Positions 11,886-37,332 of a stretch of DNA of 40,701 nt are shown piece by piece. Every line of letters begins with the position of its first letter. Position 1 is the stretch's first letter. Below the pieces are notes generated by a model. The model was not told where the DNA came from. It saw only the letters and a program-made list of their open reading frames with translations, and ran no database searches. A program made the translations under genes and the position numbers. The stretch comes from a virus, in the IMG/VR virus record IMGVR_UViG_3300035212_000593, positions 1 to 40,701 of that record; one strand, given 5' to 3'.

Positions 11886-12067
11886 TGGTTTTACCAACAA
11901 TGAGGGGTTCTATATATTCCTCAAGACCAACTAACATTCCTCCACCAGAATTTAGAAGTTTAAATTTTGTATTTTATCCTTTTTGGGATAGAGAAACTAT
12001 TATAAATAGATATGATTCTTCGGTAGTTACTACAACTACAACAGCGAGAGGATGGTTTTTTAGATGA
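11882..12067 (+). CDS. Small hypothetical protein between fibre genes
   Basis: This 61-aa protein is not recognised. It is coupled on both sides: its ATG overlaps the TGA of the upstream fibre gene, and its own TGA overlaps the ATG of the next adhesin gene. The sequence is rich in aromatic residues and proline (IPPPEF, FVFYPFW) and ends with a Thr run and GWFFR. No membrane helix or signal is evident. The gap-free tandem arrangement supports it as a real gene. It could be a fibre chaperone or small fibre-associated protein, but nothing in the sequence proves this. Confidence 0.6.
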   Translation: MMVLPTMRGSIYSSRPTNIPPPEFRSLNFVFYPFWDRETIINRYDSSVVTTTTTARGWFFR

Positions 12068-18177: not shown

Positions 18178-18337
18178 TCTACATAGACAGCGCAAGCTGA
18201 GACTAAGCTTATATTGGCCGCACCCGCTCTGATAGGCTGGTGTCTTATGGCCGCTCTACCGGGCAAGAAATGCGCCGGGAATTTCGCTACGGGAGAAGAG
18301 ATCGAAAGGTCTCTTCTTCTTTTGAAAGGAGGTGCTT
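18178..18337 (+). promoter_or_regulatory. GC-rich structured leader between terS and terL
   Basis: This 160-base gap is unusual in an otherwise overlapping operon. It is GC-rich against its neighbours and contains short pairing arms (CACC at about 18223 with GGTG at about 18238, CCGG at 18259 and 18275). It then has a strong GAAA-loop hairpin with arms 18294-18303 and 18308-18317, directly before the terL ribosome binding site. I see no tRNA, open frame or T7-type promoter. A packaging or late-promoter site, or an mRNA stability element, is possible. Confidence 0.5.
18294..18323 (+). terminator. GAAA-tetraloop hairpin before terL, terminator-like
   Basis: The arms 18294-18303 and 18308-18317 pair over 10 bp with one T-G wobble around a GAAA loop (18304-18307). 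The stem can extend three more pairs using wobbles. The tail is TCTTTT, a weak T tract. It may be a partial terminator or an mRNA processing or stabilising structure. TerL starts 20 bases downstream. Confidence 0.6.
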
Positions 18338-20008
18338 ATGCAAGTACCACAAGAAGTTTTAGATGACTTTAGAAATCATTGTTTCTTTAGTATGAAGTAT
18401 TTAGGATTAGGTGAACCAAGTCCTCTACAATATGCTATTGCAGAGTGTGTTCAGAATGGTCCTAAAGATATGCAGTTACAAGCTGGACGTGGTGCCGGTA
18501 AATCAACCATCGTTGCTATGTATGCTTCGTGGTTGTTATTAAAAAACCCAAACACAACCATTATTGTTTTGTCAGCAACACAAGATAAAGCTATTAAGTT
18601 TATCTCACAAGTGCGTCAAATTTTAAACCTTGTTCCTTATATGAAGCATCTCTTACCTAAGGAACACGATAAAGACTCAGCATTTGGTTTTAATGTGGGT
18701 ATAAAGGATAGGGTTGGACAAGATCTTTCATGCTACGCTAAGGGTATCACAGGACAAATTACGGGTAGTCACGCTGATTATGTATTAGCTGATGATATTG
18801 AAATTGAAAAGAATTCAGACAACCCGCAATCAAGACAGAAACTATTAGAGAAATTAACTGAATTAGAACAGATTAGAAATCCAGTTGAGTGGGGTCGTAT
18901 TGTATTTCTAGGTACTTATCAAAGTACTGATTCTATTTATCTACGCTTACCCTATGAGATTGTTAAGTTTCCGGCAGTCATTCCAGACCCAGATATTGAA
19001 TCTCAGTGGCTTTATTGTCATCCATACATCTCAGAATTAGACGGAGAACCGGGAGATACGGTAGATCCAGCACGATTTCCACAGCATATTCTTGAAGAAC
19101 GACTTGCTAAAATCGGACCAAGACAATTTGCTTTACACTATTTATTAGATCCTTCCTTAAGTGACTCAAGTAAGCATCCTCTTAAGCTAGAAGACTTAGT
19201 AGTAATGGATGTTTCTCCAGAGGTATTTCCAGAAAAGGTAGTTTGGTCTAGAGCTAAGGCATTAGATATACCAAGTTACGGATTGAATGGTGATCTTTTG
19301 TATGGGCCTATGTGGTCTTCCACAACCATGACTAAATATCTAGATACAAGATTATGTATTGATCCATCTGGTCGTGGTGGAGACGAAACAGCTTATTGTG
19401 TTGCGTCTTTTGTAAATGGCTATATAGTCATACATGAGTTAGATGGTCTTCCGGGTGGGTATGACGATGTAACACTTAGCCGTATAGCTAAGATTGCTAA
19501 TCAATACCAAGTATCTACTATTATGGTAGAAGCAAACTATGGTGATGGTATGTTTACGTCACTACTTAGACCTATCGTATACAGTATTTGTGGTAGATTA
19601 GCTATTGAAGAATTTAAGGTTTCTGGTTCTAAAGAAAAAAGAATCATAGATACGCTAGAACCAATCATGTCACAACACCGCCTTATTTTTGATACTGAAG
19701 CTATTAGATCTAAGGAAACACAAATACAAATTTCAAGAATGCAAGATAGACGAGGAGCATTAAAACACGATGACCGTATAGATGTTCTCTCTAGTATTGT
19801 AAAACTGTGGGTTAATAATCTTGTTATTACCCCAGATGAAATAGTTGAACGTAACAAAGATAAAGAACACCGAGATACGGTTAAAGAGTGGTTAAGCAAT
19901 AAAAGAATTATTGGCCTTCTTGGTGAGAAGTATCGTGGAATTGTAGAAGCACAAGAGCGCGGAAATAAACAACGTGTCTCTATAATAGATAATTTTTATA
20001 GGAGATAA
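18338..20008 (+). CDS. Terminase large subunit / DNA maturase B (T7 gp19-like)
   Basis: This 556-aa packaging motor has a Walker A motif AGRGAGKST at residues 49-57 and a Walker B VLADD with acidic residues at about 152-153. The coupling region includes the FLGTYQST segment. The nuclease domain begins at Asp342 (CIDPSGRGGDETAY, highly characteristic of the T7 group), followed by MVEANYGDG and KHDDRIDVLSS, which supply metal-binding acids. T7 gp19 is 586 aa, so this is full length. ATG 18338 has AAAGGAGG at 18325-18332, the best ribosome binding site in the window. The in-frame GTG 18332 would use part of that site, so I rejected it. The enzyme pumps DNA into proheads and cuts concatemers. Confidence 0.96.
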   Translation: MQVPQEVLDDFRNHCFFSMKYLGLGEPSPLQYAIAECVQNGPKDMQLQAGRGAGKSTIVAMYASWLLLKNPNTTIIVLSATQDKAIKFISQVRQILNLVPYMKHLLPKEHDKDSAFGFNVGIKDRVGQDLSCYAKGITGQITGSHADYVLADDIEIEKNSDNPQSRQKLLEKLTELEQIRNPVEWGRIVFLGTYQSTDSIYLRLPYEIVKFPAVIPDPDIESQWLYCHPYISELDGEPGDTVDPARFPQHILEERLAKIGPRQFALHYLLDPSLSDSSKHPLKLEDLVVMDVSPEVFPEKVVWSRAKALDIPSYGLNGDLLYGPMWSSTTMTKYLDTRLCIDPSGRGGDETAYCVASFVNGYIVIHELDGLPGGYDDVTLSRIAKIANQYQVSTIMVEANYGDGMFTSLLRPIVYSICGRLAIEEFKVSGSKEKRIIDTLEPIMSQHRLIFDTEAIRSKETQIQISRMQDRRGALKHDDRIDVLSSIVKLWVNNLVITPDEIVERNKDKEHRDTVKEWLSNKRIIGLLGEKYRGIVEAQERGNKQRVSIIDNFYRR

Positions 20009-20009
20009 T

Positions 20010-20648
20010 ATGCCCCCCTTTACAGCAGCAATAGTTGGTGGTTTAGCAGCGGGATCTGGAATTCTGAGTGGAATGAGCGGAGCAGCGCAAGCAGACGCTC
20101 AAGCACAAGCCCAACAGATGCAACAAGATCAACAAAACTTTCAGAATCGTTGGCAGAATGAAGCACAGAATAGAAATATTCTTCGTCAGTGGCAGGCGCA
20201 ATATCACGCAAATAGACAGATAGAGCGATCATCTCTACAGCAAGAAGTAGCTGGTGCATTCTACGGAACGAAGGCCTATCAAAACGCTACTTCAGAATTA
20301 AGTAAACAAACAAGACAAGTAACAGATCAGTTACTATCCTCAGCATCATCTAGTGGAGTGTCTTTAAATTCAGCTTCTGTAAGAGCAACAATGAGACAGG
20401 CAACAACAGAAGCCCAAAAGATGTCGGGATCAATGCGAGTAAACTACATTAATCAAATGCAAGATCTTTCAACACAAAGAAATAATCTTCTCGGACAGAG
20501 AAATATTATGGCCCCAGAACAGCAAGCCTTTATGAATACAACAGGTGGTATTGTAAACTCCTCTTCAAACATACTTGCTACCGGAATTGCTACAGGATTG
20601 ATGTCTGGATTATCTTCAGGTATTGGTGCATATAAGGCTTCCAGCTAA
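20010..20648 (+). CDS. Internal virion protein (T7 gp14-like)
   Basis: This 212-aa protein starts with a Gly/Ala-rich hydrophobic segment (about residues 5-25, AAIVGGLAAGSGILSGMSG). A Gln/Asn/Ala-rich helical core follows (AQADAQAQAQQMQQDQQNFQ and onward), and it ends with a second Gly/Ser-rich hydrophobic segment (about 185-205). T7-group gp14 proteins (about 196 aa) have the same hydrophobic-ended, Gln-rich helical make-up and are ejected to form a channel in the outer membrane. The start is one base after the terL stop, with AGGAG upstream, and the stop overlaps the next ATG. The assignment is by composition, size and context, not by a catalytic motif. Confidence 0.7.
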   Translation: MPPFTAAIVGGLAAGSGILSGMSGAAQADAQAQAQQMQQDQQNFQNRWQNEAQNRNILRQWQAQYHANRQIERSSLQQEVAGAFYGTKAYQNATSELSKQTRQVTDQLLSSASSSGVSLNSASVRATMRQATTEAQKMSGSMRVNYINQMQDLSTQRNNLLGQRNIMAPEQQAFMNTTGGIVNSSSNILATGIATGLMSGLSSGIGAYKASS

Positions 20649-21616
20649 TGTTAAACCAAAATAAATTACAAAAATTATTTGAAATAGCTACAGGACGTAT
20701 GCCAGAACAACAACGACTTACTGAAGCTAAACAAAAAGTAAGTGGACTTGATAGAACTAAAAAACGAAAACAAATCTTTAATAGTCTATTTAAAGATCCA
20801 TTAACGGCTTTCGAGCGTTGGTATCAAGACTCCCTAAAGGATGTTAATTCAAACAACGTCGATGAGTTTTGGGGAGACGCTGAAACAAGTTTTCCGGGTA
20901 GCCCAGAGCAAGCAAAAGATTGGTTACGTTCTAATGTTAGTAGACCTCAGGATGCTTCTAATAAGGAGTTTACACTTAGAAATACAATGTCTAAGTCGCC
21001 ACGTTGGTTACAACAAGAATTATCTCCAGAGTTAGCAGATACCGAACAGATAGTAGCTTCGCAAAACCTAAGTAAGTCTCAGCTAACCTATAGAAAAGTA
21101 TTACAGGATAAGATAAATAAGTTTGATTTTTCTGCTTTAGACCAAGATGTCCCGGCTGAAATACATGTTGATGATATGTTAAAGCTTGAGATGATGGGTA
21201 TTCTAGATACAGCATCCGTTATAGATGGTCGTTTTGTTACTCTTAATAAAGATGGAACAATTCAACCAGCCTTTGCTTTAGGTAATTCTGACGAAGCTGG
21301 TGGACTTGGACTTGGACCAGAAACAGAAATTGTCACAAAGATGGCCAAACCCCTATTTGAAAAGGCTGTTGTTTCAGGTCTAGATACTAGTACTTCTATG
21401 CAAGCATTAAATAACAAAGCTGTTATGGGTGTTGGTTTAAAAATGTTACCAGATATGGATATCTCAGAGTGGTCTACTGTTTTAGGGACAATGCCAAAAG
21501 AAGAAATACGTGGAGCTATTCAAACAGGGTTTAATAAAAAAGCAGATATTGATCCCTTCGCATCAAATGAAGATGTACTAGCGGATACTCTTTCTATACA
21601 GGAATTCTTACAATGA
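20648..21616 (+). CDS. Hypothetical internal virion protein
   Basis: This 322-aa hydrophilic protein is predicted mostly helical, with many Lys, Gln and Asp and no membrane helix or catalytic motif I recognise. The N-terminal half has features such as FERWYQDSLKDVN and DEFWGDAETSF; the middle holds a beta-like piece (GRFVTLNKDGTIQPAF). It is coupled to its neighbours by TAATG upstream and ATGA downstream. It lies between gp14-like and gp15-like candidates, so it is probably a core or ejection protein with no obvious T7 equivalent. It could alternatively be a chaperone for the giant downstream proteins. Confidence 0.62.
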   Translation: MLNQNKLQKLFEIATGRMPEQQRLTEAKQKVSGLDRTKKRKQIFNSLFKDPLTAFERWYQDSLKDVNSNNVDEFWGDAETSFPGSPEQAKDWLRSNVSRPQDASNKEFTLRNTMSKSPRWLQQELSPELADTEQIVASQNLSKSQLTYRKVLQDKINKFDFSALDQDVPAEIHVDDMLKLEMMGILDTASVIDGRFVTLNKDGTIQPAFALGNSDEAGGLGLGPETEIVTKMAKPLFEKAVVSGLDTSTSMQALNNKAVMGVGLKMLPDMDISEWSTVLGTMPKEEIRGAIQTGFNKKADIDPFASNEDVLADTLSIQEFLQ

Positions 21617-24600
21617 TTGAAATGCAAGGTCCGGGTGTATTTTTAAATCCACCCAATAAACCCATATATCAAGAGACACAAACAATACTACCAAATGTTG
21701 TAGTTGGTGTTGGTCAGGGTGTTGATTGGGGAGCTATTGGTCAATCAGCTTCTCAACTAGGAACTACTCTAGTTGAATACAATATAGATGAAAAAAGAAA
21801 AAAGAAGATGCGGTTACTAGATGATTTAGAAGCTAAAACTAAAAATCAAATTGATTCTGCAGCTTCTATTAATGATTTTGATTCTGTAGATGTGCTAACT
21901 TCTGAGTATAAAAATCAAGTAAAAAATATTGTTGGTTATGATATTGAATCTGATGGCGGTGGACAGACAAGTTCAGTACTTTTAGAAAAGGCTAGAGAAG
22001 TATCTTATGGCTTTGATTTATATCGTCAAAAGGCCAGAAGAGAAACATCTGATGATGTACAACTAGCCGCTTATCGCGATGATAGTTTAACATTTCAAGA
22101 ACAACTTCAAAATATTGATGATATTACTACCTTTGAATCTACCGTAAAAGATAGAGAAACACAACTACATCAAATGATTGAGGACAGCAAAAACGCACCT
22201 CAAACACTAGGACAGATGGCTTATACTGCTTCCATTCGAAAGGATCTATTAGATCTAAATGATTCAGCGAAAAGGGTTAAAGAAGCTAATGTTAAAACAA
22301 TAACAGAAGCTAGCGAGAGTAAGAGAAAAGCTGATCTTGGTATTATTCTAAATTTAACCAATTCAATTTCACAAGAATATGCTAATGTTGCTGACTTACA
22401 AAAACAAATTGATAGTGCTAAAGATGGTGGATTAGAAGCCGATACTGAATTAGTAACTAGGCTTACTATTGAATTAAACTCAAAACTAGATACTATTGAT
22501 GGTTTTCGTACTACAGTAGACGAACAAAAAAACAACTATGCCAAGACTTACTATAATGCAGGGTGGTCAAAGGACCTTGCTGTAAGATACTTAGGTAAAG
22601 AAGATTACAATACTATATTAAATGAACAGGAAAAACACGATGAAGCGTTTAATCTTAGATCTGCTGCTCCATTTAGAGTTGCTAGAGAACGGCAAAAGAC
22701 AGCCATAAAGAGTATTAATGATAGAGTAGATACCAGTATAGGTTCTGCTTCTGTTCGGATTGCTGCTATTGATCAACTAATAGATGAAGCACCAACTGAG
22801 CAAGCAAAAGAAAAACTAAGAATAGCTAGAGATAGTATATTTATAGCGTTAGAAAACGAGTTACTATCTACAGTAGAGGGTGGTGTTCCAGCTTTTACTA
22901 AGGATTTAGTTGCGAGTTATTCTGGTTTAAAGGTACTTGGATCTCGCCCACTTCCATATCCAGTGTATTCACAACGATTGGATGGGACTATGGCAGATGC
23001 AATTGAATCCGAGGTTGCATCCTCTAGTAATATCTATAAAGTCTTTCGACCAACAGTTGATAAGTTTAATGCGTTTTTACAAACACGTTTAGATGTTAAG
23101 GGAGGTAGCAATACGGGAAGATCAACACAACAAGAAAAACAATTAAAATATAAATTTATTTTAAATACGTTATCGCAAAGACTTCCTATTACTGCTTCCC
23201 GAGAAGATATTAATGGAGCTTATAACTCTTATTTGGTGGAGAGTGGTATTAATATCTATGAGCCGGATGGTATTACACTTAAGCCATATACAGAAATTGT
23301 ACCACAACTACAAGAAAAGAATATTAAGCTACCACCAAACGGTTTTATGCATACTGATTTCTTTCAAGATATGCTTCAAAACTATTTACGATCACAAACT
23401 CCTGTAGATTTAAATAAACTATCTAGTGACTTTGTTACACTTTTCTCAAGCCCTGAAAATGCTTGGTATGGTGGATTAACAGGAGCAAGTGATATCAACT
23501 CAATGACACGCGGTATTGCTGATATGATTGCTGGTGGACTATCTAGACCAGAAACATCGGGTGTAGCAACAGCCATGTTTTTAATGTTTACACCAAGAAA
23601 TCAAATAGATACAAATCTTACAGCACTAGCTGCAGCTATGCCACCTAATGATTTTCTATCAGATAAGGAAGTAAGAAACCTTGGTGTTTTAGCACGAGCT
23701 TATAATGGAAATGGCGATCCAATTTTATTTGCCGCAGCTAGACAAAAAGATATTAGTATTCTTAAAGCTAAAGAACAAACAATAAAACAAGTAAACGATA
23801 CTGACTCAACAAGCGCATTAGTTGGTAGGTATAAGTCAACAGCTAAAGTAAAAGATGTTAACGAGGAATCCAGAACTGAACTTAATAGTATTGTTTTAAA
23901 GCTTAGAGAATCTGTATTTCCTATCTTAGATATTCCGCGAGACGATGAAACACTTAGTCCTACTGACTTTAATCAGAAATACTTACTTGGTAATGCTGTT
24001 TCTCAAATAACTAAAGATATTATAACAATGTCTCTAGGTCATTACTATGATCTTTTAATAGACCAACCAAATCTAGACGAAAAATCTAGATTTGAAAAAG
24101 TTACTACCCGTATACAAGATGATCTTAATAACGGATATAGAGCTAGTATAGATGGTTTGAGAAAGGTTGTAACACCAAATGTTAAACAACAATCACTAAG
24201 CTCTACCATGATTGCTGGATCTAATATTGATTTACCGGGTATTGAAAACAGAGGACAGTATGTACTTAATACCATGCTGGCTTCTGATTGGGATCATAAT
24301 GGATCTGATCACACTGTCTGGAATCAATTTGGTATGGTTACCCGTCCACCAGATACAGATAGACCAACAGCATTAGCTCTGTCTATTTCTGCTAGTAATG
24401 GAACAGACATCTCAAGTATTCCGGGAGATAGATCTTTTAATCTTATGGCCATTGCGGAAGCGGCTGTTGGTGATAAAAAAGATAACAGAACAATGTTAAT
24501 TGCTCAAGCTGCAATTAGAGATCTAAAAAACCCAACCACACTAGCTGATGCAATAAACCAAGTTAGAACAAGAATGGCCAGTTATAAAAGTGGATTAGAT

Positions 24601-25722
24601 TCTGGAGAATATAAGTTTTTTGTCACAACAACTACAAGTAATGCAAACAAGAAAGTCGTATCGCCTTTAGTTACGTTACAGAAAAAAGACGGCACTCCAG
24701 CTTCTTCCATGCAATTAACGCCTCTACGAGAACCACTTAAAGGTACATCAGTACACAGAGAAACTTTCAAGAGTGTTTCTAAAGAACAATTCAATACGTG
24801 GGCTGTGAAGCAAATCAACAATGGAACAATAAACCATACCAGTGTTATTGATTACTTAACAATTCATAATATCAATCAGCAGACCTTTAGTGAAACAATG
24901 CAAGTTGTAATAACTGCTGATGATCTTCCATACCCTTTTATAGCTATACCAACAAGTATTCCAAATGAAGATTATACATATGAGTTCGAAGAATACTTAG
25001 GAAAAAAGCAATGGTATGTGACACAAGATGGTGGACAAAGAGTTGCACTTACATCTTCATTTGATACTTCTGACTTACAACCAGTAGGTAAGAAGATACC
25101 AAGTATGTTAGATAAGGTGGTAGGAATCTTTTCACCGACTCCAGACAGCACTGGTATTACATCTGATGGTATTATAGATCGTAAAAGAGTTGTAACTACT
25201 GTTGCTGGAAAACCAATAGTATTGTCTTATTCAAAACCAACCCTAAGTGATAAGTGGAGTTTAGAGACCACATCTCCAAACGTCACCGAAAAAGAAATAA
25301 CAACTGGGGTTGTGGACATGAAAGAAACATATGTTAGTGGTGGTGATGAAGTTGTACGTCTAAAGTATGTAAAACCATCCTCCTCTAAAACTTGGATTTT
25401 AATCGAAGGACCATCTTCAGAAAACGTTACTGATTCTTTTACGGGACGTTTACCAAAAGAAAACAGTATTGTTAAACAAGCACTAGGAATAGAAGATCCA
25501 ATTGAACGGTATACTATGATAGCTGGCGAATTACGTCGTCAAGCTATTGCATCTAGCGATAAGACACCAGAAAGCCGTAAAAGAATTTTAGCGGCTGATA
25601 GGTATTTCGATAGAGCTATATCCTTTATGAAGGAACAAAAGAGATTACGTAATGATAGAAAAGATTTATTAACAACTTTCCAAGAGTATGTCTCTGAGGA
25701 AGTAAACCAATTAATTGATTAA
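21613..25722 (+). CDS. Large internal virion / ejection protein (gp15-like position)
   Basis: This 1369-aa protein is long, hydrophilic and rich in predicted helix, with coiled-coil-like stretches at about residues 55-130 and 205-300 (for example QEYANVADLQKQIDSAKDG). It has no convincing membrane span or enzyme motif. T7 gp15 is 747 aa, so this is nearly twice as long. After about residue 1090 it becomes more beta-rich, with two related segments: EEYLGKKQWYVTQDGGQRV and VRLKYVKPSSSKTWILIEGP. The tail is again helical and charged. It overlaps the preceding gene by ATGA and is followed by a GAAA-loop hairpin. Probable role: a component of the internal core and of the periplasmic DNA-translocation tube. 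Assignment is by order and size. Confidence 0.65.
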   Translation: MIEMQGPGVFLNPPNKPIYQETQTILPNVVVGVGQGVDWGAIGQSASQLGTTLVEYNIDEKRKKKMRLLDDLEAKTKNQIDSAASINDFDSVDVLTSEYKNQVKNIVGYDIESDGGGQTSSVLLEKAREVSYGFDLYRQKARRETSDDVQLAAYRDDSLTFQEQLQNIDDITTFESTVKDRETQLHQMIEDSKNAPQTLGQMAYTASIRKDLLDLNDSAKRVKEANVKTITEASESKRKADLGIILNLTNSISQEYANVADLQKQIDSAKDGGLEADTELVTRLTIELNSKLDTIDGFRTTVDEQKNNYAKTYYNAGWSKDLAVRYLGKEDYNTILNEQEKHDEAFNLRSAAPFRVARERQKTAIKSINDRVDTSIGSASVRIAAIDQLIDEAPTEQAKEKLRIARDSIFIALENELLSTVEGGVPAFTKDLVASYSGLKVLGSRPLPYPVYSQRLDGTMADAIESEVASSSNIYKVFRPTVDKFNAFLQTRLDVKGGSNTGRSTQQEKQLKYKFILNTLSQRLPITASREDINGAYNSYLVESGINIYEPDGITLKPYTEIVPQLQEKNIKLPPNGFMHTDFFQDMLQNYLRSQTPVDLNKLSSDFVTLFSSPENAWYGGLTGASDINSMTRGIADMIAGGLSRPETSGVATAMFLMFTPRNQIDTNLTALAAAMPPNDFLSDKEVRNLGVLARAYNGNGDPILFAAARQKDISILKAKEQTIKQVNDTDSTSALVGRYKSTAKVKDVNEESRTELNSIVLKLRESVFPILDIPRDDETLSPTDFNQKYLLGNAVSQITKDIITMSLGHYYDLLIDQPNLDEKSRFEKVTTRIQDDLNNGYRASIDGLRKVVTPNVKQQSLSSTMIAGSNIDLPGIENRGQYVLNTMLASDWDHNGSDHTVWNQFGMVTRPPDTDRPTALALSISASNGTDISSIPGDRSFNLMAIAEAAVGDKKDNRTMLIAQAAIRDLKNPTTLADAINQVRTRMASYKSGLDSGEYKFFVTTTTSNANKKVVSPLVTLQKKDGTPASSMQLTPLREPLKGTSVHRETFKSVSKEQFNTWAVKQINNGTINHTSVIDYLTIHNINQQTFSETMQVVITADDLPYPFIAIPTSIPNEDYTYEFEEYLGKKQWYVTQDGGQRVALTSSFDTSDLQPVGKKIPSMLDKVVGIFSPTPDSTGITSDGIIDRKRVVTTVAGKPIVLSYSKPTLSDKWSLETTSPNVTEKEITTGVVDMKETYVSGGDEVVRLKYVKPSSSKTWILIEGPSSENVTDSFTGRLPKENSIVKQALGIEDPIERYTMIAGELRRQAIASSDKTPESRKRILAADRYFDRAISFMKEQKRLRNDRKDLLTTFQEYVSEEVNQLID

Positions 25723-25769: not shown

Positions 25770-28700
25770 ATGATATCTGATCTGAATAAAGTTCTCGACG
25801 AAGCATCACAACCGCTTCGTCCTTCGAACGTGTATTTTTCGTCAGCCACAACTCCAACTACTCAATATAGTGGAGAGAAACCAGATTTAAATGAACAACG
25901 TATTTACAATGAAAGGGTTCAACTCGGTCTTTTAAGCCCTACCTTTCTTAATGGTAAATGGAATATAGCTGAAACTAACCTTACACGCGAGGAAATTGGT
26001 GATCAAGCTTTAGCTTATACAATCGGTAACGGTAGTAGGGGTTGGGGTGAAGCTAGTATTCAAAACGCGAAGAAAATAGCTGATCAATATTATAATAAGG
26101 GTGACGCAATGTTTACCCACGGTGGGAGAGAGACATCTCACTGGGAACAGTTTGTTGAGGGTTTCAATTTTTTTAATGTGTTCGGAGAAAACCAATCTCT
26201 TCAAACTGCTGAGGAAATTAAAAAGAAAATACAAACTGTAGATCCTCTATGGACAACCGATAAAAAGATAGATGAGTTAACAGAGTGGAAAAAAATTAAT
26301 CCAGACGTTGATAAATTTCTTTCCTCTGCTGGGATTGACGTACAGGATTATGCCCTCAATACTAGAAACCAAGAAGCTTTCCTCTTTAACATGAATGAAG
26401 CTGTTCAAAACGCTAGAATGAATATTGGTATGGGGTTATTTGAAAGAGATAATAATACTCTTGAGAAACTTGGTAATAGTTTAGCTGAGGGAATTAAAGA
26501 CCCACTAATGCTTCGCGATGTTGTCCTAACTACCGCCGCAACAGCTGGTCTTGGTCTTATTGCGGGTGTTGCTGGTTTATCAGCAAGAGCATTATCTGGT
26601 GGTATTGTAGCCGGGGTGAATGCATCTAGATCTATAAGGGGTTTAGAACTTGCTCGAAAAGCTGCAAACGCTGCTGCCCTCGCTACTGGACCAATGACTG
26701 GATTAGTTGAAGGTCCAGCCTATGCCGCTATTCGTTCTATTATACCAGCTACTGGTCGATCTGTTACTTCTACACTAGCAGCTAGGGGTTTGGCTCTTGG
26801 TTTAGAGGGTGGAGTTGCTGGAGCTGTCTCATCACTAGCTGATCAAAGATCAGAACATGAGTGGAGATCTTTAGTTTTTCAGGGTGTTGATCCTGTTCTA
26901 AAGTATAATCTGGGTGAAACAGCCCTAGCTGCATTAACTGGATCGCTAGGTTCAGTTGGGCTAGCTACAGCCTTCCGTTTTGGTTTGGGTTCAATTGGCG
27001 ATTATAAGTATTACAAGACCGGAGATTGGGATAGCTTACGTAGACAAGTTACTAATTCTATGGATACGTGGGCAACCACCCGAGATGGTGACATTGTTTG
27101 GGGCAATACCCTAAGCGATGGTCGTGGTATGTTCTTTGGTAATGTTATTGATAACTTTATGAAGAATTACGATGGTAGGGATTTTACCAACGTAATGTTA
27201 AATGGGTCTAGACTCTTTGGTAAGTTTAATCCACGTATTGCTGGAAAAATGAAACTAGATGTAACTAAGGTCTTACCAGTTATTGAAGAGTTTGAAAAAG
27301 CAACAGGAATTGCAGGAGAAGCAGCAATGCTTCGGGTAGATGGAGTTGCTCCTGAAACCAGAAGAGTGTTTGATCTTATCCTCAATGAAAAAAACTTAGA
27401 CGACGCTAACCTTTCTCTTGCTGATGTCAGAAACGTTTTAACAGACTACAACCTTACTCGTTCTAAGGAACTAGTGGGACCAAGACCAACCACAGCAGTG
27501 GAAGGTGTACTTGCTACCATTTCAACCGCGACTAAACAGGTTGATATTGCAAATCAAATTCATCGTCTTATTGGAGCAAAGAGTTTAGATCGCAAGTTAG
27601 AAACAATTGGTATACAATCATCAGATGTAATTAACAACGCGGAAGCAACACTAGGTCGTTCTATAAACTTATCGGATGATGTTGACTTTGGTAACTTTGT
27701 TGTAGCGGCTAAATATGCTGCTGCCTCAGTTGACGAAGCTCAGGTTGTCGGAACACTAAAGAGAATTCTTAGTGGAGATTTTGGCGGTGGTCGTACCATT
27801 CCACGAGAAGTAGTTCAATCTATTTTTGCTAATGCGTTTGGTACTAAGCCCTTAATCATTACAGCTTCTGGTTCTAATAAGAACTTTGCTGTATCGGTAG
27901 ATCCAACTATTGGAGAAGTCTTTAGTACTAAACGTACTTTAAAGGTTGGACCTAATGGTAAGTTAGAGATTGAATTAAGAGCTGATGATCCAACCTTAAA
28001 GTTCTTTACTACAGATAGTATAAGACTAGACACAGAAACATTTAAAACTAAACTAGCTGATTTAAACGATAAGTTAAATACAGTTTGGAATACCAGCGTA
28101 AAGAAAAAGATTAAAGATACAATTGATACCGTTAAGGATATTAAATCAAAAGAAACACTTACTGATTCATTTGCAAGTGGTAAGAGTGTAACAGTTGATA
28201 ACATTAAAAAGATCTTTAAACTAACAACGACTGAGGCTACAACCGCAAAAATTATTATGGATTCCTTGGGGTATAGTGGCGATTCGAGCATACTTCGTAT
28301 TGCTAAGTTAGCAGCAGATGATCGAAATGCTGAGATTGTATTCGAAGGAACAACAGCTCTGATAAGAGCTACAACATCATCTGATTTAGGTACTGTAACA
28401 CATGAGATGTCTCACTACTTACAGGTTATGGTTCTTGATAATTTAGATTCCGAAGCTAGACAAGCCATAGGTATTACAGATGATATGTGGGTTAAATTTA
28501 AAGATTGGGTTGGGTTCACTGGCGATGAGTGGTCTGAGAAGGCCGCAGAAAAGTTTGCAAATGGTATGTCTCAATATGTTAGACGTATTATGGCTGGTGA
28601 TGGTCGCGCCCCAGCAACCCAAATTCAAAGGTTGTTTCATCGTATTGGTGATCACCTTGGTGATCTAGGAGAACGATTTAAATCACAAGATGGTCTTGAA

Positions 28701-31700
28701 GCTGGTCTTATTATTTCGGCAGAAGCTGAAAGTGTGTTTGAAGCTTTATTAAATAGATCTAATGATAAGATTGGCGAGTTGTTTGATAGTGCCTATCAGG
28801 GTCTCTTTCAACGATTATCTAAAGAGAAAAGACAGGCTATTGGTAAAGATATTTTAGGTCAAGCCGCTTTTAGTGATTATCTTGCAAAGAGAGAACTCAA
28901 ACATGAAGCATCTACAAAGGTTATTGATCCGCTTGCTAAAGCGTCGTCTATTAAGTCAGAATCAACCACAGCCATAATTAATAGTATTTATGATAACCTT
29001 AAGAAATCTGTTACACGAAAAGCAGTTAAAGAAGCTATTACACTTGCTGGTTATACAAAAGAAGAATACATTAAAGATGTAACAACTCTTTTAAATAACA
29101 CTATTGGACAAAAGAATATAACGGCAACTAAACCAGCTCGTCTTGATTCAGCATCAAAACTAGGTGATGATGAATTAGTTGATCTATATTTTGATTTATT
29201 TTTAGCTGGTTCAACTGACGAATCCTTAAACTATATCAGCGTTATTATTGACACAGAACCTACGCTTATAGTAAAAAGTCGTGGTACTAAAACTGAAGAA
29301 GATTTATTAAAAGAAACAGGATCAACTCCTACAGAACTAGGTGGTAAGATTCCTTCAGATCCAGCATGGATTCTAACCTCGCGTAATGAAAAGAAAAAAA
29401 CTTATAGCAAAGACGCATTACTAACGGAAATAAATAAAAGAAAAGATACTGGTATAACTAAACTAGACAAAAGTTTAACAGTCTCTAGTGAACTTACAGC
29501 AGCTCTTGATGAGCTATTTAAGGAAACGGGATTCGTTGACTCGGTTGGTATTCCAGTTAGTCTTACACCAACAGAAAAAATTGTAGTTGAACGAACAGCC
29601 GCAGCTGTGGAAGCATCGCGACACGCTAGCGATCATATGGCAGCTGTTACTACCGCACTTAGCGAAGATAGGCTATTAGATGCAGCTTTGGCTGAACGTG
29701 CCGAAGTAATTCTTCCAACCGTAATTAATGTGGAAGCAATCCCAACAGATTTAACAGCTAGTCTAACTGCTCTCGGAACGGTGGGAGACACAGCTAAAGA
29801 AGAAGCAACTAGATTAAAGTCATCAATTTCTGTAGCTGAGGTTAAAGAAGTTAAGAATATCGTAGCAGCTGTTGTAGCTAAAACAACAAAATCAAAACAG
29901 TTATTAGACACATACTTAGAAGTTACCGAGAATCAGATTGCTAAGGATTATCTTAAAGCAGAGCTTCGATCACAGATTACAACACTTACAATTGAAGGCA
30001 TTGCTGGTTTAGATTCTAATCAATTTAAACGGTTTATCGAACTAGAGGCAATTATTTCTGCTCTTCCATCAGACACAAGAGAAACACTTGCTATAGAACA
30101 AGCACTTGATCGTGTGCAACAAGACTCCTCTAATGATGCCATGAACCAAGCTATTAGTGTAACTAAGTGGACTAAGCAAGATATTAGTTTATATGTTACA
30201 GGTAGGTTTCATAGAACAAACGGTTCATTAGTATCAGAATTTATAGATGCTAAGAAATATGTAGAGACTAATATTGTAGCGTATAAGAAACTAATAAAAG
30301 AAATTATTGATTTAGAATCAACCTATAACGCAGCAGTAACGAAACTTAAGGAAGCTGGTGATATTCTTTCGGTGATCGAAAAGAATAAACTTACGGAAAT
30401 TACTAAATCATTTATTAGTAAGAAGGCACAAATAGGTAAGTTTGAAGCTGCAACGAAAAGACTTAAGCTAGGCGTACTTCGTTCATCTATTACTGATGTA
30501 ACAGAAGCCGATCTTATGTTAAAGTCCTCTATTGTTACGTTAAAGACAGAGTGGCTACAGGTGGATAAGGTTGGATCTAAACTAGCAAACCTTATTATGG
30601 GTAAGTTAGATAATGCTGATTTCCAAGATATTCTAATAACACTAGATAAGAATATAAATAAATTAGTTGATAAGGTTGTGTTTGATGGAGAACCAACCAC
30701 AAAACTTTCTCTAGCTGAGTTTAATATAATGACTCCACTAGATAAAGCGGAAGCATGGTCTCGTGGTAATATTAAATCAAACGCTGCTTCTGCCTTTGTT
30801 AAAACAGTAATCAATAATTTAGAACTCAATGCTAAGAGACGTTTAGAGGGAACTAAAAAGGGTGTTCTTACTGGCGATGTAGAGCTTGGTGAAAAACGAG
30901 CGGTTAGTTTAATTGAATCATCTAAGGCTGTTACTAAGACAGAAACAAAAGCAGATAGAGAAGATTTTTACTATAAGCTTGAAGAAGAAGTAACATCATT
31001 ACGATATGTAGCTTCTCTGTTTTATCAACATCTTGTAGAGACGGATCAAGAAGAATTATCGAAAGTCTTTATGGCGCGTAAACAAGCCATGACATCTAGG
31101 GGTGAGGTTCTAGCTTCAACTGCTCGTGTTCTAGAAAACTTCGGTATTACTATGACAACGAGTACAGTAAAGAATCGTATATCTAAACTGTCAGATGCAT
31201 TCGAAGATTTCGTTTCTACTCTTCCAGAAGTAGAAGCTACTTCTCTTAAGGCGAAGTTTAGATTCGAAAAAAAGAAAAAGACACTTGCTCAACGTCTAAC
31301 AAAAGAAATGACTGATGATGAACTAGATGAATTGGATTCTCTATTTGCTTCAATTCAACCCGGAGAATCATTAGTAGCTCCTGAGTTCTTACGTACACTT
31401 ATAGAAGAATCAACCTCTAGTCTATATCGTAATATTGCAGATGGTTCAGTCTCAAGTGCCGGGGAAGCCCTACAACAGTTGGCTGAAAGTACTACATCTA
31501 AGTATGCTACACTTGCACAACAATTATTAGAATCACGCGGTGATGTATTAAATAACATTGGTTTACATCTAGCTCTATATGCTAAGGATGATTTAACTGA
31601 TGGTGAATTTGTTGGTAACAACATATTTTTAAACGCACGATTTGGTAAGATTAATGTTGTTGTGTTGTTACATGAAATTATTCATGCTATCACAAGTAGA

Positions 31701-34700
31701 GATCTTGATCGCTATGGGTTTGATGATGCAGCTGGTTCTGTTGCGTACTTAGCTACTTTAAATAAATCAATTGAAAGTGGTGTTGGTCCAAACGGAACTA
31801 AGTTAAGTAAGGGTGCTCGTTCTATTATTCAGTCTTATCTTCAAACTATAGACTGGATTGAAACGACACCCAGAGCAATGGATTTACTTGGTATTGATTT
31901 CAAGGAAAAACTAATTGGTCAAACTGTATCTCAACCTGAAACATCAGCTCATTATGCTATATCAAATATACATGAGTTTGTTGCTGTTGCTCTTACTGAT
32001 GTATCTGTATTAGGATTCTTTGGTGCTGTTCCTGGTTTAACAGGCAGACAATCAAAACCAATTACTGGTATGATTAGGGGAATTGCTGAAAGTATCTGGC
32101 CTACGCTTCCAGAAAATAAACTTATTCAGCGGATTGATTATTTACGAAAGCAAGTAACAGCTGGTTTAGTAACTGGAGCATTAACAACTAAGATAGATAT
32201 ACCAGATCCTGTTGATATTCTTCTTCCGCCGCTTATGCCGGGTACAACCCCGTTTAGGGTTTTTGGTGAAGAAGTATTTAAAACTCAAGGTCTAGATGTA
32301 GCAGATCTACTTAGATCAAATCTAAAGTCAGCCAAGGGTAGAGTATATGCTCAACTTCGAGCTGTAAATCTTCAGGAACAGTTATCCGAATCAGCTAGAG
32401 CTTCAGGTGCAGATGCAACTAAGTTTGAAACTAAGCTTTCTGAATTAATTGATTCAGCTGAAGTACGGAGACGTAATCTCTTAGCAGCTGGACTCCATGA
32501 AGAAATGGAGCCAGAGGATCTTGAAATTATTCAAAGTATGATAAATGGAACAAAAGCGTTTACTCAACGTAGTGCTGATCACCTTACTCGTAGAGTTGGT
32601 GGAAGACCACCATCCGTCAACATAACTTCCAAGTTTGTTGGTAAGTCTTATAGAGATCTTACAGACGATGAACGTAGATCTTTTGTATCTGATGTTCTTC
32701 TTCCTACAGTAGAAAATAAGATGGGTAAGCGTAATCGTAGTGCTGGTATATATTCTATGATAACAGACTCTACAGTCGGTAAGTCTGTAAACTCTCTTAT
32801 TGGTGGCGGTGCTGCCTATGGCGATACAGCAGATGCTGACTCTTTATTACTACAATTCTTTTCCAAGATTTATGATCCTCTAATGGACTTACGTGATGGT
32901 GAGTTATCCGGTGTGTTTGAATTATTCTCTGTTGACCTTGTTAATGCTGAAACCAATAACATGTATAGTAGGGCTGGTCTATTAAACATACAGCGTAAGA
33001 TTACAACACAGGTCTCAAATACAGCAGAGTTAGAACAACTCTACGAAAAGGCTTGGATGTATCTTAGTAAGCTTTCTGAATTACCGAATGGATTACCACA
33101 TAGAGAACTTATTGTAGAACTAATTAAGGGTGTTCATAAGTATAATGAAGTTATTGGAGAAACCCTAAATAAATATGGTTTCTTAGCTGATCCTATGAAT
33201 CCAACGGAATATGGTACAATACATAAAGTTAATATGCTTGCGTTTGAGGAGCAGAAGCAATTTGTTGATGCTCTTGTAAAACATGCTTTAATTAAAGAAC
33301 GAGATAGTAAAGAACTATCTATTGTAACTATGGATGCATTAGGTTGGATTAAACTTGTTAGAGATCCTGATAGTGATACCATTGTCTCTGTAACGGTTAC
33401 TGATGAATCTCCTTTAGTTGATTTTGTTGGTACTTATGATTACTCAAAATTTAAACAACTAGCACTTAAGAAAAACCTAAAGCCAGAGTTATTATCGGTT
33501 TATGAAAACGGTTTAATCTCTTCACGTGATTACAAGAACTGGGATATCTATAAGTCACGCGGAGATAGTTATACAGCTATCCAGCACACAATGACTGTAG
33601 CTAAGAATAACTATCTTAATATCGAAGCAGCTGAATCACGTGGTGGTAAGCCACGTACTGAAAGTATTGGTGCTGGTCGTGAAATGGATATCTCTAGAAT
33701 TCTATCTCATTCTGAGATTACCAACAATCCAGAATTAGCAAAATACTTTGATAAGGATATCTTCGGACTTATTAACCAACAGTTACGAACAAATGTAACA
33801 GAAGCTGTAATGACAAAATATATTACAGAAACGTTTGGTCTTAAAATGTCTTGGTTAGATCTTATTGAGGTTTCCAAAAAGCATGGAGAAGCTAGTCGCG
33901 GTCAACTTACAAAGAGTGAGCAAGACTCACTTAATCGTGGGTATGATCGAATTAAAACAATCTGGGAAGCTAATACGGGTAAGATGCTAAGTAGTAGAGA
34001 TGGTCTGGATCGTCATTATAGATCCTTATTAGAGAATGGTTCAAGACCTTTAGTATTAGCAGCAAGCGGTTTACGTGCTGCCTTAACATCTACAGGTGAA
34101 ACCGTAAGAGCTATTCTACAAAGTAACCATAACCGTGGAATGCTCCGACAAGTATTACCTAACTTTATTCAAACACTAAAGTTATTTAGTCGCGATAAGA
34201 GACAGACAATCCAACAGGTAGCTTCAGCCACTCACTGGATTAGAGGGCTATCATCTGACCACCTATTACTACGTGCAGAAATGAATCCAAACAATCCCTT
34301 TGGTGGGACTATTATGGGTGCTAGACGTGGTGGCTGGTTCAAGGACTTGGCTGCAGCTTGGGCTGGTGTTAAGGAACGAAACAAGTTAGAGGACTCTATT
34401 GTTGGTAAAGCAGCTAATTATTTATCTGTACCAGCAAGTAAGTTAGGTTCTCCACTAGCTTTCGTAAACGATATTACTACAACGCTTCATGTTCAGAACT
34501 TACAATACAACCTAACTCAAAATTCTAAGAAGTTTTTAGCTTTAGCTAATCTCTTAAAGGATGGTGGTACAGATTCATTATCTGGTTTTAGTGAGTTAGC
34601 TACTAAGGTTGGATTATCTCCTAAGGAAGCTATTGACTTATCTTCTATGGGTCTTCTAGATCCCAAGAGAATTGAAGTAATGATTGAAGCTGCTAAGGAC

Positions 34701-35285
34701 CAACGTAACTATCGTGAAGGTATGTTAGATGTCCAAAGTCTATTTATCTGGGCAGGCGAAGACCCCACTAAGATTGACACAATCAATCGTATGGGATCAC
34801 TTATTAATGCCACAGTTAGACATACCAATACCGACCCCACACTACTTGATTTAAGAATTAATCAATCTGCATACGCCCGATCTATGGGTGTATTCATGCA
34901 ATTCTTATTAAGTCACTCCACTCAAGAAATAGGTAGACGTAGACGTTATACAACTACCGCCTACTCTAAACACCTTGCTGGTCTTGTTATGATGGAAGCT
35001 ATTGCCTACAGTCTAGCAAGAACTAAAGACGAGGATGAAGATACCTGGGTCTGGCAAGACCTTAATGAGAAACCATTTGAAACCGTAGTTAACTTTGGTA
35101 CCTCTCTTCCACTACTAGGAAGTTATCAGTTCTTATCCTCTTTGTTAAGAGCTGGTATCCTTCAGACCCACTCTACCATTACAGGGGACAAGTCTGATAA
35201 TACATATAGAGTACCAGATCTATTCTCCGGTCCATCTGAGAATATTCCACGTAAGGCTGTAGATATGATTAAAGATCTACTGTAA
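25770..35285 (+). CDS. Giant 3171-aa internal virion/ejection protein with two metallopeptidase sites
   Basis: This is the largest gene in the window and sits where a gp16-type ejection protein is expected, last in the internal virion block. Near residues 245-300 there is a hydrophobic Ala/Gly-rich stretch (TAGLGLIAGVAGLSARALSG). A first zinc-peptidase motif, HEMSH, lies at 878-882 with a candidate third ligand Glu927 (AAEKFANGM). A second, HEIIH, lies at 1968-1972 with candidate Glu2069 (NIHEFVAVAL). Long helical linkers separate them. T7 gp16 is 1318 aa and carries a transglycosylase; I see no such motif here. The layout recalls the large polyvalent proteins of phages, which are delivered with the DNA and combine several enzymatic domains. 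Functions as protease and as channel component are inferred. ATG 25770 has TAAGGAT upstream. Confidence 0.8.
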   Translation: MISDLNKVLDEASQPLRPSNVYFSSATTPTTQYSGEKPDLNEQRIYNERVQLGLLSPTFLNGKWNIAETNLTREEIGDQALAYTIGNGSRGWGEASIQNAKKIADQYYNKGDAMFTHGGRETSHWEQFVEGFNFFNVFGENQSLQTAEEIKKKIQTVDPLWTTDKKIDELTEWKKINPDVDKFLSSAGIDVQDYALNTRNQEAFLFNMNEAVQNARMNIGMGLFERDNNTLEKLGNSLAEGIKDPLMLRDVVLTTAATAGLGLIAGVAGLSARALSGGIVAGVNASRSIRGLELARKAANAAALATGPMTGLVEGPAYAAIRSIIPATGRSVTSTLAARGLALGLEGGVAGAVSSLADQRSEHEWRSLVFQGVDPVLKYNLGETALAALTGSLGSVGLATAFRFGLGSIGDYKYYKTGDWDSLRRQVTNSMDTWATTRDGDIVWGNTLSDGRGMFFGNVIDNFMKNYDGRDFTNVMLNGSRLFGKFNPRIAGKMKLDVTKVLPVIEEFEKATGIAGEAAMLRVDGVAPETRRVFDLILNEKNLDDANLSLADVRNVLTDYNLTRSKELVGPRPTTAVEGVLATISTATKQVDIANQIHRLIGAKSLDRKLETIGIQSSDVINNAEATLGRSINLSDDVDFGNFVVAAKYAAASVDEAQVVGTLKRILSGDFGGGRTIPREVVQSIFANAFGTKPLIITASGSNKNFAVSVDPTIGEVFSTKRTLKVGPNGKLEIELRADDPTLKFFTTDSIRLDTETFKTKLADLNDKLNTVWNTSVKKKIKDTIDTVKDIKSKETLTDSFASGKSVTVDNIKKIFKLTTTEATTAKIIMDSLGYSGDSSILRIAKLAADDRNAEIVFEGTTALIRATTSSDLGTVTHEMSHYLQVMVLDNLDSEARQAIGITDDMWVKFKDWVGFTGDEWSEKAAEKFANGMSQYVRRIMAGDGRAPATQIQRLFHRIGDHLGDLGERFKSQDGLEAGLIISAEAESVFEALLNRSNDKIGELFDSAYQGLFQRLSKEKRQAIGKDILGQAAFSDYLAKRELKHEASTKVIDPLAKASSIKSESTTAIINSIYDNLKKSVTRKAVKEAITLAGYTKEEYIKDVTTLLNNTIGQKNITATKPARLDSASKLGDDELVDLYFDLFLAGSTDESLNYISVIIDTEPTLIVKSRGTKTEEDLLKETGSTPTELGGKIPSDPAWILTSRNEKKKTYSKDALLTEINKRKDTGITKLDKSLTVSSELTAALDELFKETGFVDSVGIPVSLTPTEKIVVERTAAAVEASRHASDHMAAVTTALSEDRLLDAALAERAEVILPTVINVEAIPTDLTASLTALGTVGDTAKEEATRLKSSISVAEVKEVKNIVAAVVAKTTKSKQLLDTYLEVTENQIAKDYLKAELRSQITTLTIEGIAGLDSNQFKRFIELEAIISALPSDTRETLAIEQALDRVQQDSSNDAMNQAISVTKWTKQDISLYVTGRFHRTNGSLVSEFIDAKKYVETNIVAYKKLIKEIIDLESTYNAAVTKLKEAGDILSVIEKNKLTEITKSFISKKAQIGKFEAATKRLKLGVLRSSITDVTEADLMLKSSIVTLKTEWLQVDKVGSKLANLIMGKLDNADFQDILITLDKNINKLVDKVVFDGEPTTKLSLAEFNIMTPLDKAEAWSRGNIKSNAASAFVKTVINNLELNAKRRLEGTKKGVLTGDVELGEKRAVSLIESSKAVTKTETKADREDFYYKLEEEVTSLRYVASLFYQHLVETDQEELSKVFMARKQAMTSRGEVLASTARVLENFGITMTTSTVKNRISKLSDAFEDFVSTLPEVEATSLKAKFRFEKKKKTLAQRLTKEMTDDELDELDSLFASIQPGESLVAPEFLRTLIEESTSSLYRNIADGSVSSAGEALQQLAESTTSKYATLAQQLLESRGDVLNNIGLHLALYAKDDLTDGEFVGNNIFLNARFGKINVVVLLHEIIHAITSRDLDRYGFDDAAGSVAYLATLNKSIESGVGPNGTKLSKGARSIIQSYLQTIDWIETTPRAMDLLGIDFKEKLIGQTVSQPETSAHYAISNIHEFVAVALTDVSVLGFFGAVPGLTGRQSKPITGMIRGIAESIWPTLPENKLIQRIDYLRKQVTAGLVTGALTTKIDIPDPVDILLPPLMPGTTPFRVFGEEVFKTQGLDVADLLRSNLKSAKGRVYAQLRAVNLQEQLSESARASGADATKFETKLSELIDSAEVRRRNLLAAGLHEEMEPEDLEIIQSMINGTKAFTQRSADHLTRRVGGRPPSVNITSKFVGKSYRDLTDDERRSFVSDVLLPTVENKMGKRNRSAGIYSMITDSTVGKSVNSLIGGGAAYGDTADADSLLLQFFSKIYDPLMDLRDGELSGVFELFSVDLVNAETNNMYSRAGLLNIQRKITTQVSNTAELEQLYEKAWMYLSKLSELPNGLPHRELIVELIKGVHKYNEVIGETLNKYGFLADPMNPTEYGTIHKVNMLAFEEQKQFVDALVKHALIKERDSKELSIVTMDALGWIKLVRDPDSDTIVSVTVTDESPLVDFVGTYDYSKFKQLALKKNLKPELLSVYENGLISSRDYKNWDIYKSRGDSYTAIQHTMTVAKNNYLNIEAAESRGGKPRTESIGAGREMDISRILSHSEITNNPELAKYFDKDIFGLINQQLRTNVTEAVMTKYITETFGLKMSWLDLIEVSKKHGEASRGQLTKSEQDSLNRGYDRIKTIWEANTGKMLSSRDGLDRHYRSLLENGSRPLVLAASGLRAALTSTGETVRAILQSNHNRGMLRQVLPNFIQTLKLFSRDKRQTIQQVASATHWIRGLSSDHLLLRAEMNPNNPFGGTIMGARRGGWFKDLAAAWAGVKERNKLEDSIVGKAANYLSVPASKLGSPLAFVNDITTTLHVQNLQYNLTQNSKKFLALANLLKDGGTDSLSGFSELATKVGLSPKEAIDLSSMGLLDPKRIEVMIEAAKDQRNYREGMLDVQSLFIWAGEDPTKIDTINRMGSLINATVRHTNTDPTLLDLRINQSAYARSMGVFMQFLLSHSTQEIGRRRRYTTTAYSKHLAGLVMMEAIAYSLARTKDEDEDTWVWQDLNEKPFETVVNFGTSLPLLGSYQFLSSLLRAGILQTHSTITGDKSDNTYRVPDLFSGPSENIPRKAVDMIKDLL

Positions 35286-36944: not shown

Positions 36945-37291
36945 TGCGTGTAATTGAGCATCATATGGTTCAGGCGTTCAAGAAATGTGTACATGGTAAT
37001 TTGTCGCGATATCGTACCGGTAATACTAGTGTATGGTGTGAAGGTACTAAAGTGTGTATATCTCTCCATGGTAACACCATCATAACACATGATATTACAT
37101 GTCCGAATGAATACTTCTTCGATACGTGCGGGTGGCACACTAGAACTACCTTTAGCCGTATGAATACCTTTGCTCATATTATGGGTATAGATGTTAGGTT
37201 CTATACCAACAAACATATCTCGTGTGTAAGGGATCGTGGACAAGACCATAAACTATTTGGTAGTTACTTATACAAAGGAAAGACACAATGA
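36944..37291 (+). CDS. Early conserved-looking protein with HGNxI and GW-T-SR motifs
   Basis: This 115-aa protein contains an aromatic beta-like stretch (SVWCEGTKVCISLHGNTII) and then FDTCGWHTRTTFSRMN, followed by IMGIDVRFYTN. I recall small early proteins of marine podoviruses with the same LHGN...GW-T-T-SR-N order, but I cannot name a family or function. It starts in a TAATG overlap with the membrane micropeptide. Its stop overlaps the start of a 14-codon ORF (ATGA) that leads into the lysozyme-like gene. An antisense frame covering it is a shadow. Confidence 0.65.
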   Translation: MRVIEHHMVQAFKKCVHGNLSRYRTGNTSVWCEGTKVCISLHGNTIITHDITCPNEYFFDTCGWHTRTTFSRMNTFAHIMGIDVRFYTNKHISCVRDRGQDHKLFGSYLYKGKTQ

Positions 37292-37332
37292 ATACTGCTG
37301 TCTACACCATCATGGAGTCATCTATCCGATGA
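37288..37332 (+). CDS. 14-codon coupling ORF (MNTAVYTIMESSIR)
   Basis: ATG 37288 overlaps the upstream TGA as ATGA and has AAGGAA about seven bases upstream. The stop TGA (37330-37332) overlaps ATG 37329 of the lysozyme-like gene, again as ATGA. Perfect coupling on both sides makes translation plausible. The lysozyme-like gene's own GGAG (37314-37317) lies inside this ORF, so ribosomes finishing it would be placed next to that start. It may be a coupling or leader peptide rather than a functional protein. Confidence 0.5.
   Translation: MNTAVYTIMESSIR

What the first reader, a model, noticed from the sequence alone, without database searches (positions are those of the whole stretch)
25770..35285. 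3171-aa ejection protein with two separate HExxH metallopeptidase sites
HEMSH (878-882, with Glu927) and HEIIH (1968-1972, with Glu2069) each have a plausible third ligand in an aromatic or hydrophobic helix, typical of real gluzincin-like sites, and lie about 1090 residues apart. T7 gp16 is less than half this size and uses a transglycosylase. A protein delivered into the cell with the genome and bearing two proteases could cleave host envelope or defence proteins, or mature itself. The layout fits the large polyvalent protein concept but with a double protease.
Basis: partly seen in the sequence, partly recalled or inferred. Interest (0 to 1): 0.72.

Follow-up and report, generated by a model that had tools for sequence, protein, structure and literature searches.

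The report
Giant phage ejection protein, two metalloproteases
A T7-like phage from a metagenome encodes a 3171-residue protein, very probably injected into the host with the DNA, that carries two genuine but different zinc-protease domains, both already widespread in other phage ejection proteins; so the two sites are real and the general kind is known.

Summary
ORF 25770-35285 (3171 aa) has exactly two HExxH sites, HEMSH 878-882 and HEIIH 1968-1972. Both sites are kept in every homologue that spans them.

The two domains belong to two different, known clades of phage metallopeptidase. Site 1 is the "HExxH..W..E.FA.G...Y..G.AP" type, with more than 500 relatives in IMG/VR; Pseudomonas phage AF gp16 is an example. 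Site 2 is the type in N4 virion RNA polymerase and in phiKMV gp37, the T7-gp16 equivalent. So not all gp16-type proteins rely on a transglycosylase: phiKMV gp37 carries this domain and has no detectable SLT domain.

Polyvalent phage proteins with one to five such domains were described in 2017. Two relatives carry extra cargo (372 and 888 aa, including ADP-ribosyltransferase domains) at one slot after site 2; the window's protein has none.

Most likely this is a gp16-position ejection protein whose proteases act after delivery, on itself or on host proteins. Catalysis, delivery and target are inferred. The site-2 model supports a zincin fold; the site-1 model is too weak to judge.

New member of a known kind; interest moderate.

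The parts
25770..35285 (+). Giant ORF, 3171 aa: polyvalent protein in the gp16 position of the ejection cassette
   Evidence: synteny terminase - gp14-position ORF - 322 aa - 1369 aa - giant is kept in the homologues
28140..28844 (+). Metallopeptidase domain 1 (residues 791-1025), phage AF / phrog_9880 type
28401..28415 (+). HEMSH, residues 878-882
   Evidence: H878 E879 H882 invariant in 41 sequences
28548..28550 (+). Glu927, predicted third zinc ligand of site 1 (E.FA.G...Y motif)
   Evidence: invariant in 41 sequences
31491..32129 (+). Metallopeptidase domain 2 (residues 1908-2120), N4-vRNAP / phiKMV-gp37 type
31671..31685 (+). HEIIH, residues 1968-1972
   Evidence: H1968 E1969 H1972 invariant in 12 sequences including N4 vRNAP
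31974..31976 (+). Glu2069, predicted third zinc ligand of site 2 (HEFVA; EFxA motif)
   Evidence: invariant in 12 sequences
32355..32360 (+). Cargo slot (between residues 2196 and 2197): empty here; about 372 aa in L002 and 888 aa in L004 inserted at this place, with ADP-ribosyltransferase domains
32358..35282 (+). Conserved C-terminal module (residues 2197-3171), 51-91% identical per 100 residues to the homologues; no detectable relative elsewhere
26520..26582 (+). Hydrophobic stretch, residues 251-271 (possible membrane contact)
18332..20008 (+). T7-type large terminase
20010..20648 (+). 212-aa ORF in the gp14 position; Pfam T7_gp14 only at E 0.055, below cut-off
20648..21616 (+). 322-aa ORF of the cassette, no family
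21613..25722 (+). 1369-aa ORF in the gp15 position, no family

Best explanation
The ORF is the largest ejection (internal virion) protein of a podovirus that also has its own T7-type RNA polymerase gene. It occupies the gp16 position. It is a polyvalent protein: an N-terminal region, metallopeptidase 1 (AF/phrog_9880 clade), a variable linker, metallopeptidase 2 (N4-vRNAP/phiKMV-gp37 clade), a slot where relatives carry effector cargo, and a conserved C-terminal module. It is probably packaged whole, threaded through the tail with the DNA and refolded in the host. Each site would bind zinc by His, His and Glu and use the HExxH Glu as base. The proteases most likely act after delivery: they cut the delivered polypeptide to free modules or cargo, and/or cut host proteins. 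Shown here: the domains, their clades, the conserved ligands, the gene position, the cargo slot. Inferred: packaging, delivery, zinc binding, proteolysis, timing and target.
For: Non-circular profile hits for both sites. Invariant catalytic residues across distant phages. AlphaFold model of domain 2 with pLDDT 81 and pTM 0.80, in which three strands precede the HExxH helix and a later helix holds Glu2069. Its first six PDB matches are zincin-type entries (M61, SPRTN, MATCAP), though below significance. Its best BFVD matches are large phage proteins, among them phiKMV-like internal core proteins and a vRNAP. Site-1 relatives in phage AF and vir555 lie in the cassette of annotated internal virion proteins. 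Gene order is kept in the homologues. ART-PolyVal cargo (E 7e-19) in L002. Post-delivery action is favoured because N4 vRNAP, which has the site-2 domain, is packaged unprocessed (PMC5512222) and showed no evidence of degradation when purified (PMC12633501).
Against: No biochemistry. The domain-1 model is weak (pLDDT 66, pTM 0.53) and finds no zincin in the PDB. The whole protein has no significant hit to any Pfam, PHROG or NCBIfam family, including the T7 gp16 family phrog_342. The C-terminal module shows no detectable homology to gp16, phage AF or N4. The gp14 match is below cut-off. A structural, non-catalytic role of the domains is possible.
Confidence: 0.6

Rival explanations
1. The proteases are effectors: after delivery they cut specific host envelope or defence proteins, and self-cleavage is irrelevant.
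For: Relatives carry ADP-ribosyltransferase cargo; Iyer et al. (PMC5512222) list host-directed proteolysis as one possible role. The two sites belong to different clades, as if for different substrates.
Against: Site 1 is very conserved (74-84% per 100 residues) and both types are widespread in large phage proteins of unrelated hosts, which fits a housekeeping role better than a fast-evolving effector.
Confidence: 0.3
2. Pre-packaging maturation: one or both metallopeptidases cut the giant protein in the producing cell or the procapsid, so that the virion holds fragments.
For: Phage P1 DdrB, with a C-terminal MPTase, is processed before packaging (PMC5512222). A 3171-4007 aa chain is hard to thread through a tail.
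Against: N4 vRNAP, which carries the site-2 domain, is packaged unprocessed (PMC5512222) and showed no evidence of degradation when expressed in full (PMC12633501). N4 threads 3500 residues.
Confidence: 0.17
3. The domains are mainly structural: zinc-bound scaffolds that regulate or shape the ejected protein, as the C-terminal region of N4 vRNAP autoinhibits its polymerase.
For: The N4 C-terminal region, which includes the HExxH domain, autoinhibits RNA synthesis (PMC12633501). T7 gp16 and several gp16 relatives do without a matching domain.
Against: The catalytic Glu of HExxH, not needed as a zinc ligand, is invariant in all 41 and 12 sequences.
Confidence: 0.15
4. One or both HExxH are chance matches.
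For: Chance HExxH does occur: T7 gp16 has HERLH at 559 that is not conserved in several near relatives.
Against: Independent profiles hit both sites at 4e-11 and 1e-13 with the Glu aligned; conserved in all homologues spanning them.
Confidence: 0.02

Closest known systems
Polyvalent proteins of phages and conjugative elements with zincin-like MPTase domains (Iyer et al. 2017, PMC5512222)
   Same: Giant multidomain protein in a late virion-gene context, MPTase domains as hubs, ADP-ribosyltransferase cargo in relatives; one to five MPTases per protein already reported, about 8% of those with more than one
   Different: This protein shows no named LPD or effector domain itself; it pairs two specific clades (AF type plus N4/phiKMV type) and has an empty cargo slot
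Pseudomonas phage AF gp16 (AF_016, 2213 aa, phrog_9880; LPD22, LPD23)
   Same: Carries the site-1 type domain, has two HExxH in one protein, lies in the cassette of internal virion proteins
   Different: Its second HExxH (HEVQHAIQ) is not the site-2 type; C-terminus not detectably related
Coliphage N4 virion RNA polymerase gp50 (3500 aa), C1 domain with HExxH
   Same: Site-2 type metallopeptidase (HELVHAST..NEFMA) in a giant ejected protein, followed by about 1270 residues (about 1200 here)
   Different: Has a central RNA polymerase domain; the window's phage has a separate T7-type RNA polymerase gene
phiKMV gp37 / KP34 gp48, gp16 equivalents (phrog_342)
   Same: gp16-position proteins with the site-2 type domain (phiKMV: HEAVHAAT..VKELVA; A7 profile E 2.7e-19, and PHROG vRNAP family E 2.5e-17)
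   Different: 1232-1337 aa, only one HExxH, no site-1 domain
T7 gp16 (1318 aa)
   Same: Gene position
   Different: SLT transglycosylase and no detectable zincin domain; no sequence similarity found to the window's protein

Membership tests
Phage-type zincin-like MPTase, site 1 (AF/phrog_9880 clade) | HExxH with a Glu in a downstream helix and the E.FA.G...Y..G.AP signature | tested here: met
Phage-type zincin-like MPTase, site 1 (AF/phrog_9880 clade) | Zincin fold in a predicted structure | tested here: inconclusive
   pLDDT 66; two strands, the HExxH helix and the Glu helix predicted, no PDB zincin match
Phage-type zincin-like MPTase, site 2 (N4-vRNAP clade) | HExxHAxT with EFxA downstream, conserved | tested here: met
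Phage-type zincin-like MPTase, site 2 (N4-vRNAP clade) | Zincin fold: N-terminal helix, three strands, two active-site helices | tested here: met
   secondary structure of the model, viral matches at probability 1.0; first PDB matches zincin-type but not significant; ligand distances not measured
Zinc metallopeptidase | Zinc binding and proteolysis | not testable with these tools
   needs purified protein
Polyvalent protein | Several enzymatic or effector domains in one polypeptide | tested here: met
   two MPTases here; ART-PolyVal in L002
Polyvalent protein | Neighbourhood of late virion genes | tested here: met
   capsid, tail and terminase genes in the same window
Polyvalent protein | Delivered into the host | not testable with these tools
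   inferred from position only
T7 gp16 / phrog_342 internal virion protein | Sequence match to phrog_342 | tested here: not met
   no PHROG hit; C-terminal profile comparison negative
T7 gp16 / phrog_342 internal virion protein | N-terminal SLT transglycosylase | tested here: not met
   also absent from phiKMV gp37 and KP34 gp48
T7 gp16 / phrog_342 internal virion protein | Last large ORF of a gp14-gp15-gp16 type cassette | tested here: inconclusive
   order fits and is conserved but gp14 is below cut-off
N4-like virion RNA polymerase | RNA polymerase domain in the same protein | tested here: not met
   no vRNAP Pfam hit; a separate RNA polymerase gene exists

The most novel reading that the evidence does not exclude
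The site-2 type metallopeptidase is a conserved working part of many gp16-type ejection proteins and of N4 vRNAP. In the window's phage group it sits beside an exchangeable cargo slot, so the injected protein would cut itself open inside the host to release a swappable effector, while a second protease of another clade does a separate job.
Probability: 0.25. Interest if true: 0.72.

Novelty: new member of a known kind. Interest (0 to 1): 0.42.

Why it matters
It ties three lines together: the giant vRNAP of N4, the gp16 equivalent of phiKMV-type phages, and polyvalent proteins share a metallopeptidase domain. In many database records the phiKMV-type protein is labelled an endolysin or transglycosylase, but no transglycosylase domain was detected in phiKMV gp37 or KP34 gp48 and the metallopeptidase is not mentioned. 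That makes an open question, whether ejection proteins are proteolytic after delivery, testable in ordinary laboratory phages such as N4. The cargo slot next to site 2 also gives a concrete place to look for effectors.

Tried and rejected
Whole-protein Pfam, PHROG and NCBIfam scans: nothing significant. tblastn of 400-921 aa pieces in cultured phages: nothing; only short pieces at E up to 10 led on. Genome contigs: no relative. PDB sequence profiles: nothing. C-terminal module against phage AF, N4 and gp16 families: not significant, rejected as evidence of homology. The similar length after site 2 here (about 1200) and after the HExxH of N4 (about 1270) and AF-type proteins (about 1200-1250) is only an observation. 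T7 gp16 HERLH at 559: not conserved in relatives, rejected as a site. Recent duplication of one domain into two: profiles align in register at HExxH only weakly (hhalign probability 3%), so rejected. A hidden vRNAP: rejected. Rfam: nothing in the window. Literature searches for a protease in gp16-type proteins found only the N4 paper and Iyer et al. as relevant; the library lacks most subscription journals.

Full report
Observation. The ORF 25770-35285 encodes 3171 aa. HEMSH 878-882 with Glu927 and HEIIH 1968-1972 with Glu2069 are as stated, and they are the only HExxH in the protein. In shuffled copies two HExxH appeared once in 2000. The ORF is base-identical in another IMG/VR contig and under purifying selection in its relatives.

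Close relatives. Two full-length homologues were found: L002 (3531 aa) and L004 (4007 aa), 66% and 62% identical to it; three more are truncated. Both HExxH and both Glu are kept wherever the aligned sequence reaches; one truncated homologue (L006) ends before Glu927 can be judged. The region of site 1 is 74-84% identical per 100 residues, that of site 2 45-51%. Both longer homologues differ mainly by one insertion at residue 2196/2197 of the window's protein: about 372 aa in L002, with an ART-PolyVal domain at E 7.3e-19, and about 888 aa in L004, with a weaker ART-PolyVal match of E 0.0036. The window's protein has no cargo there.

Site 1. Short-query tblastn led to Pseudomonas phage AF gp16 and vir555_00054, both giant proteins in the cassette of annotated internal virion proteins. 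They share HExxH, a Trp, and the E.FA.G...Y..G.AP motif. A search from this alignment found 507 relatives in IMG/VR, 80 kept. In an alignment of 41 sequences the invariant columns include H878, E879, H882, W913 and E927. A profile of 37 of these without the window's family finds residues 844-963 at 3.7e-11. Eight of 78 relatives have two HExxH, AF gp16 among them; in those the extra site reads HE.QH.IQ.

Site 2. The few weak tblastn hits in cultured phages are N4-like virion RNA polymerases and a protein named metallopeptidase. In an alignment of 12 sequences, including N4 gp50, the invariant columns are H1968, E1969, H1972, E2069, F2070 and A2072. A profile of nine without the window's family finds 1908-2077 at 1.3e-13. 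The AlphaFold model (pLDDT 81, pTM 0.80) has the order helix, three strands, HExxH helix, further helices, Glu helix. Its first matches in the PDB are zincin-type entries but not significant. In BFVD the best matches are large phage proteins at probability 1.0, among them internal core proteins of phiKMV-like phages, and a vRNAP follows at 0.99. Following this up, phiKMV gp37, the gp16 equivalent, has HEAVHAAT at 423 and VKELVA after it; the site-2 profile hits it at 2.7e-19. PHROGs independently match the same stretch of gp37 to the virion RNA polymerase family at 2.5e-17. VAC_51, VP93, Draal03, KP34 and Peggy proteins also match the profile and keep HExxH; T7, TM38, PP1 and Bylgja do not match. 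Pfam finds no transglycosylase in phiKMV gp37 or KP34 gp48, although records call such proteins endolysin or transglycosylase.

Combination. Among all loci held, only the window's family carries both domain types in one protein. This was not a survey of a whole collection. The two domains are not a recent duplication.

Nature of the phage. Terminase, capsid and tail proteins are of T7 type, and an overlapping contig carries a separate T7-type RNA polymerase gene downstream of the giant gene. The giant ORF follows a gp14-position ORF, a 322-aa ORF and a 1369-aa ORF, an order kept in the homologues. It is not a detectable member of the T7 gp16 family by sequence.

Mechanism. The most likely picture is a latent, delivered, two-protease polyvalent protein. 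Action after delivery is favoured over pre-packaging maturation because N4 vRNAP, with the site-2 domain, is packaged unprocessed (Iyer et al., PMC5512222) and showed no evidence of degradation when purified whole (PMC12633501). The cargo slot after site 2 suggests that this protease may free cargo; this is inference. Host targets remain possible, and P1 DdrB shows that pre-packaging cleavage exists in the wider class (PMC5512222).

Novelty. Iyer et al. 2017 already described one to five zincin-like MPTases per polyvalent protein, with about 8% of MPTase-bearing proteins holding more than one. So this is a new member of a known kind. What seems less noticed is that the N4-vRNAP type domain is part of phiKMV-type gp16 proteins; the ejection-protein review PMC8954989 does not use the words protease or peptidase, but the library searched is incomplete.

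Limits. No coordinates of the models were available, so ligand geometry was not measured. The domain-1 model is weak. Virion presence, delivery, zinc, catalysis and target are untested.

Noticed in passing
L121:11567-15580 (phiKMV gp37); L122-L125, L130: phiKMV-type gp16 equivalents carry an N4-vRNAP type HExxH domain; phiKMV gp37 and KP34 gp48 have no detectable SLT domain, though many records call such proteins endolysin or transglycosylase.
   Followed up: partly
L002:14201-15700 and L004:14000-17101: Cargo inserted at one slot after site 2: ART-PolyVal in L002, a weaker ART-like match in L004. The middle of the L004 insert has a DN...D pattern that reminded me of a kinase-like domain, by eye only; no library match.
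   Followed up: partly
L024:8498-12130: Another internal-virion-type protein (phrog_6651 match) with two HExxH; the first is the site-2 type, the second a different type.
   Followed up: partly
L032:3001-9642 (Pseudomonas phage AF gp16): Two HExxH (807 and 1007) in a cultured phage's giant protein, labelled hypothetical; LPD22 and LPD23 present.
   Followed up: partly
L129:3596-7552 (T7 gp16, residue 559): HERLH in T7 gp16 is not conserved in several near relatives, so probably chance.
   Followed up: yes
window 37236-37715: Destabilase (i-type lysozyme) domain, E 9.9e-10, GTG start; possible lysis enzyme.
   Followed up: no
window 12064-15147: 1027-aa protein with four DUF285 stretches in the tail-fibre region.
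   Followed up: no
window 39997-40701: ORF cut by the window end, just before the place where the overlapping contig G001 has its T7-type RNA polymerase match; perhaps the start of that gene.
   Followed up: no
window 17870-40701: Base-identical to IMGVR_UViG_3300042907_000531 (61067 bases) over the stretches compared; that contig continues beyond the window.
   Followed up: yes
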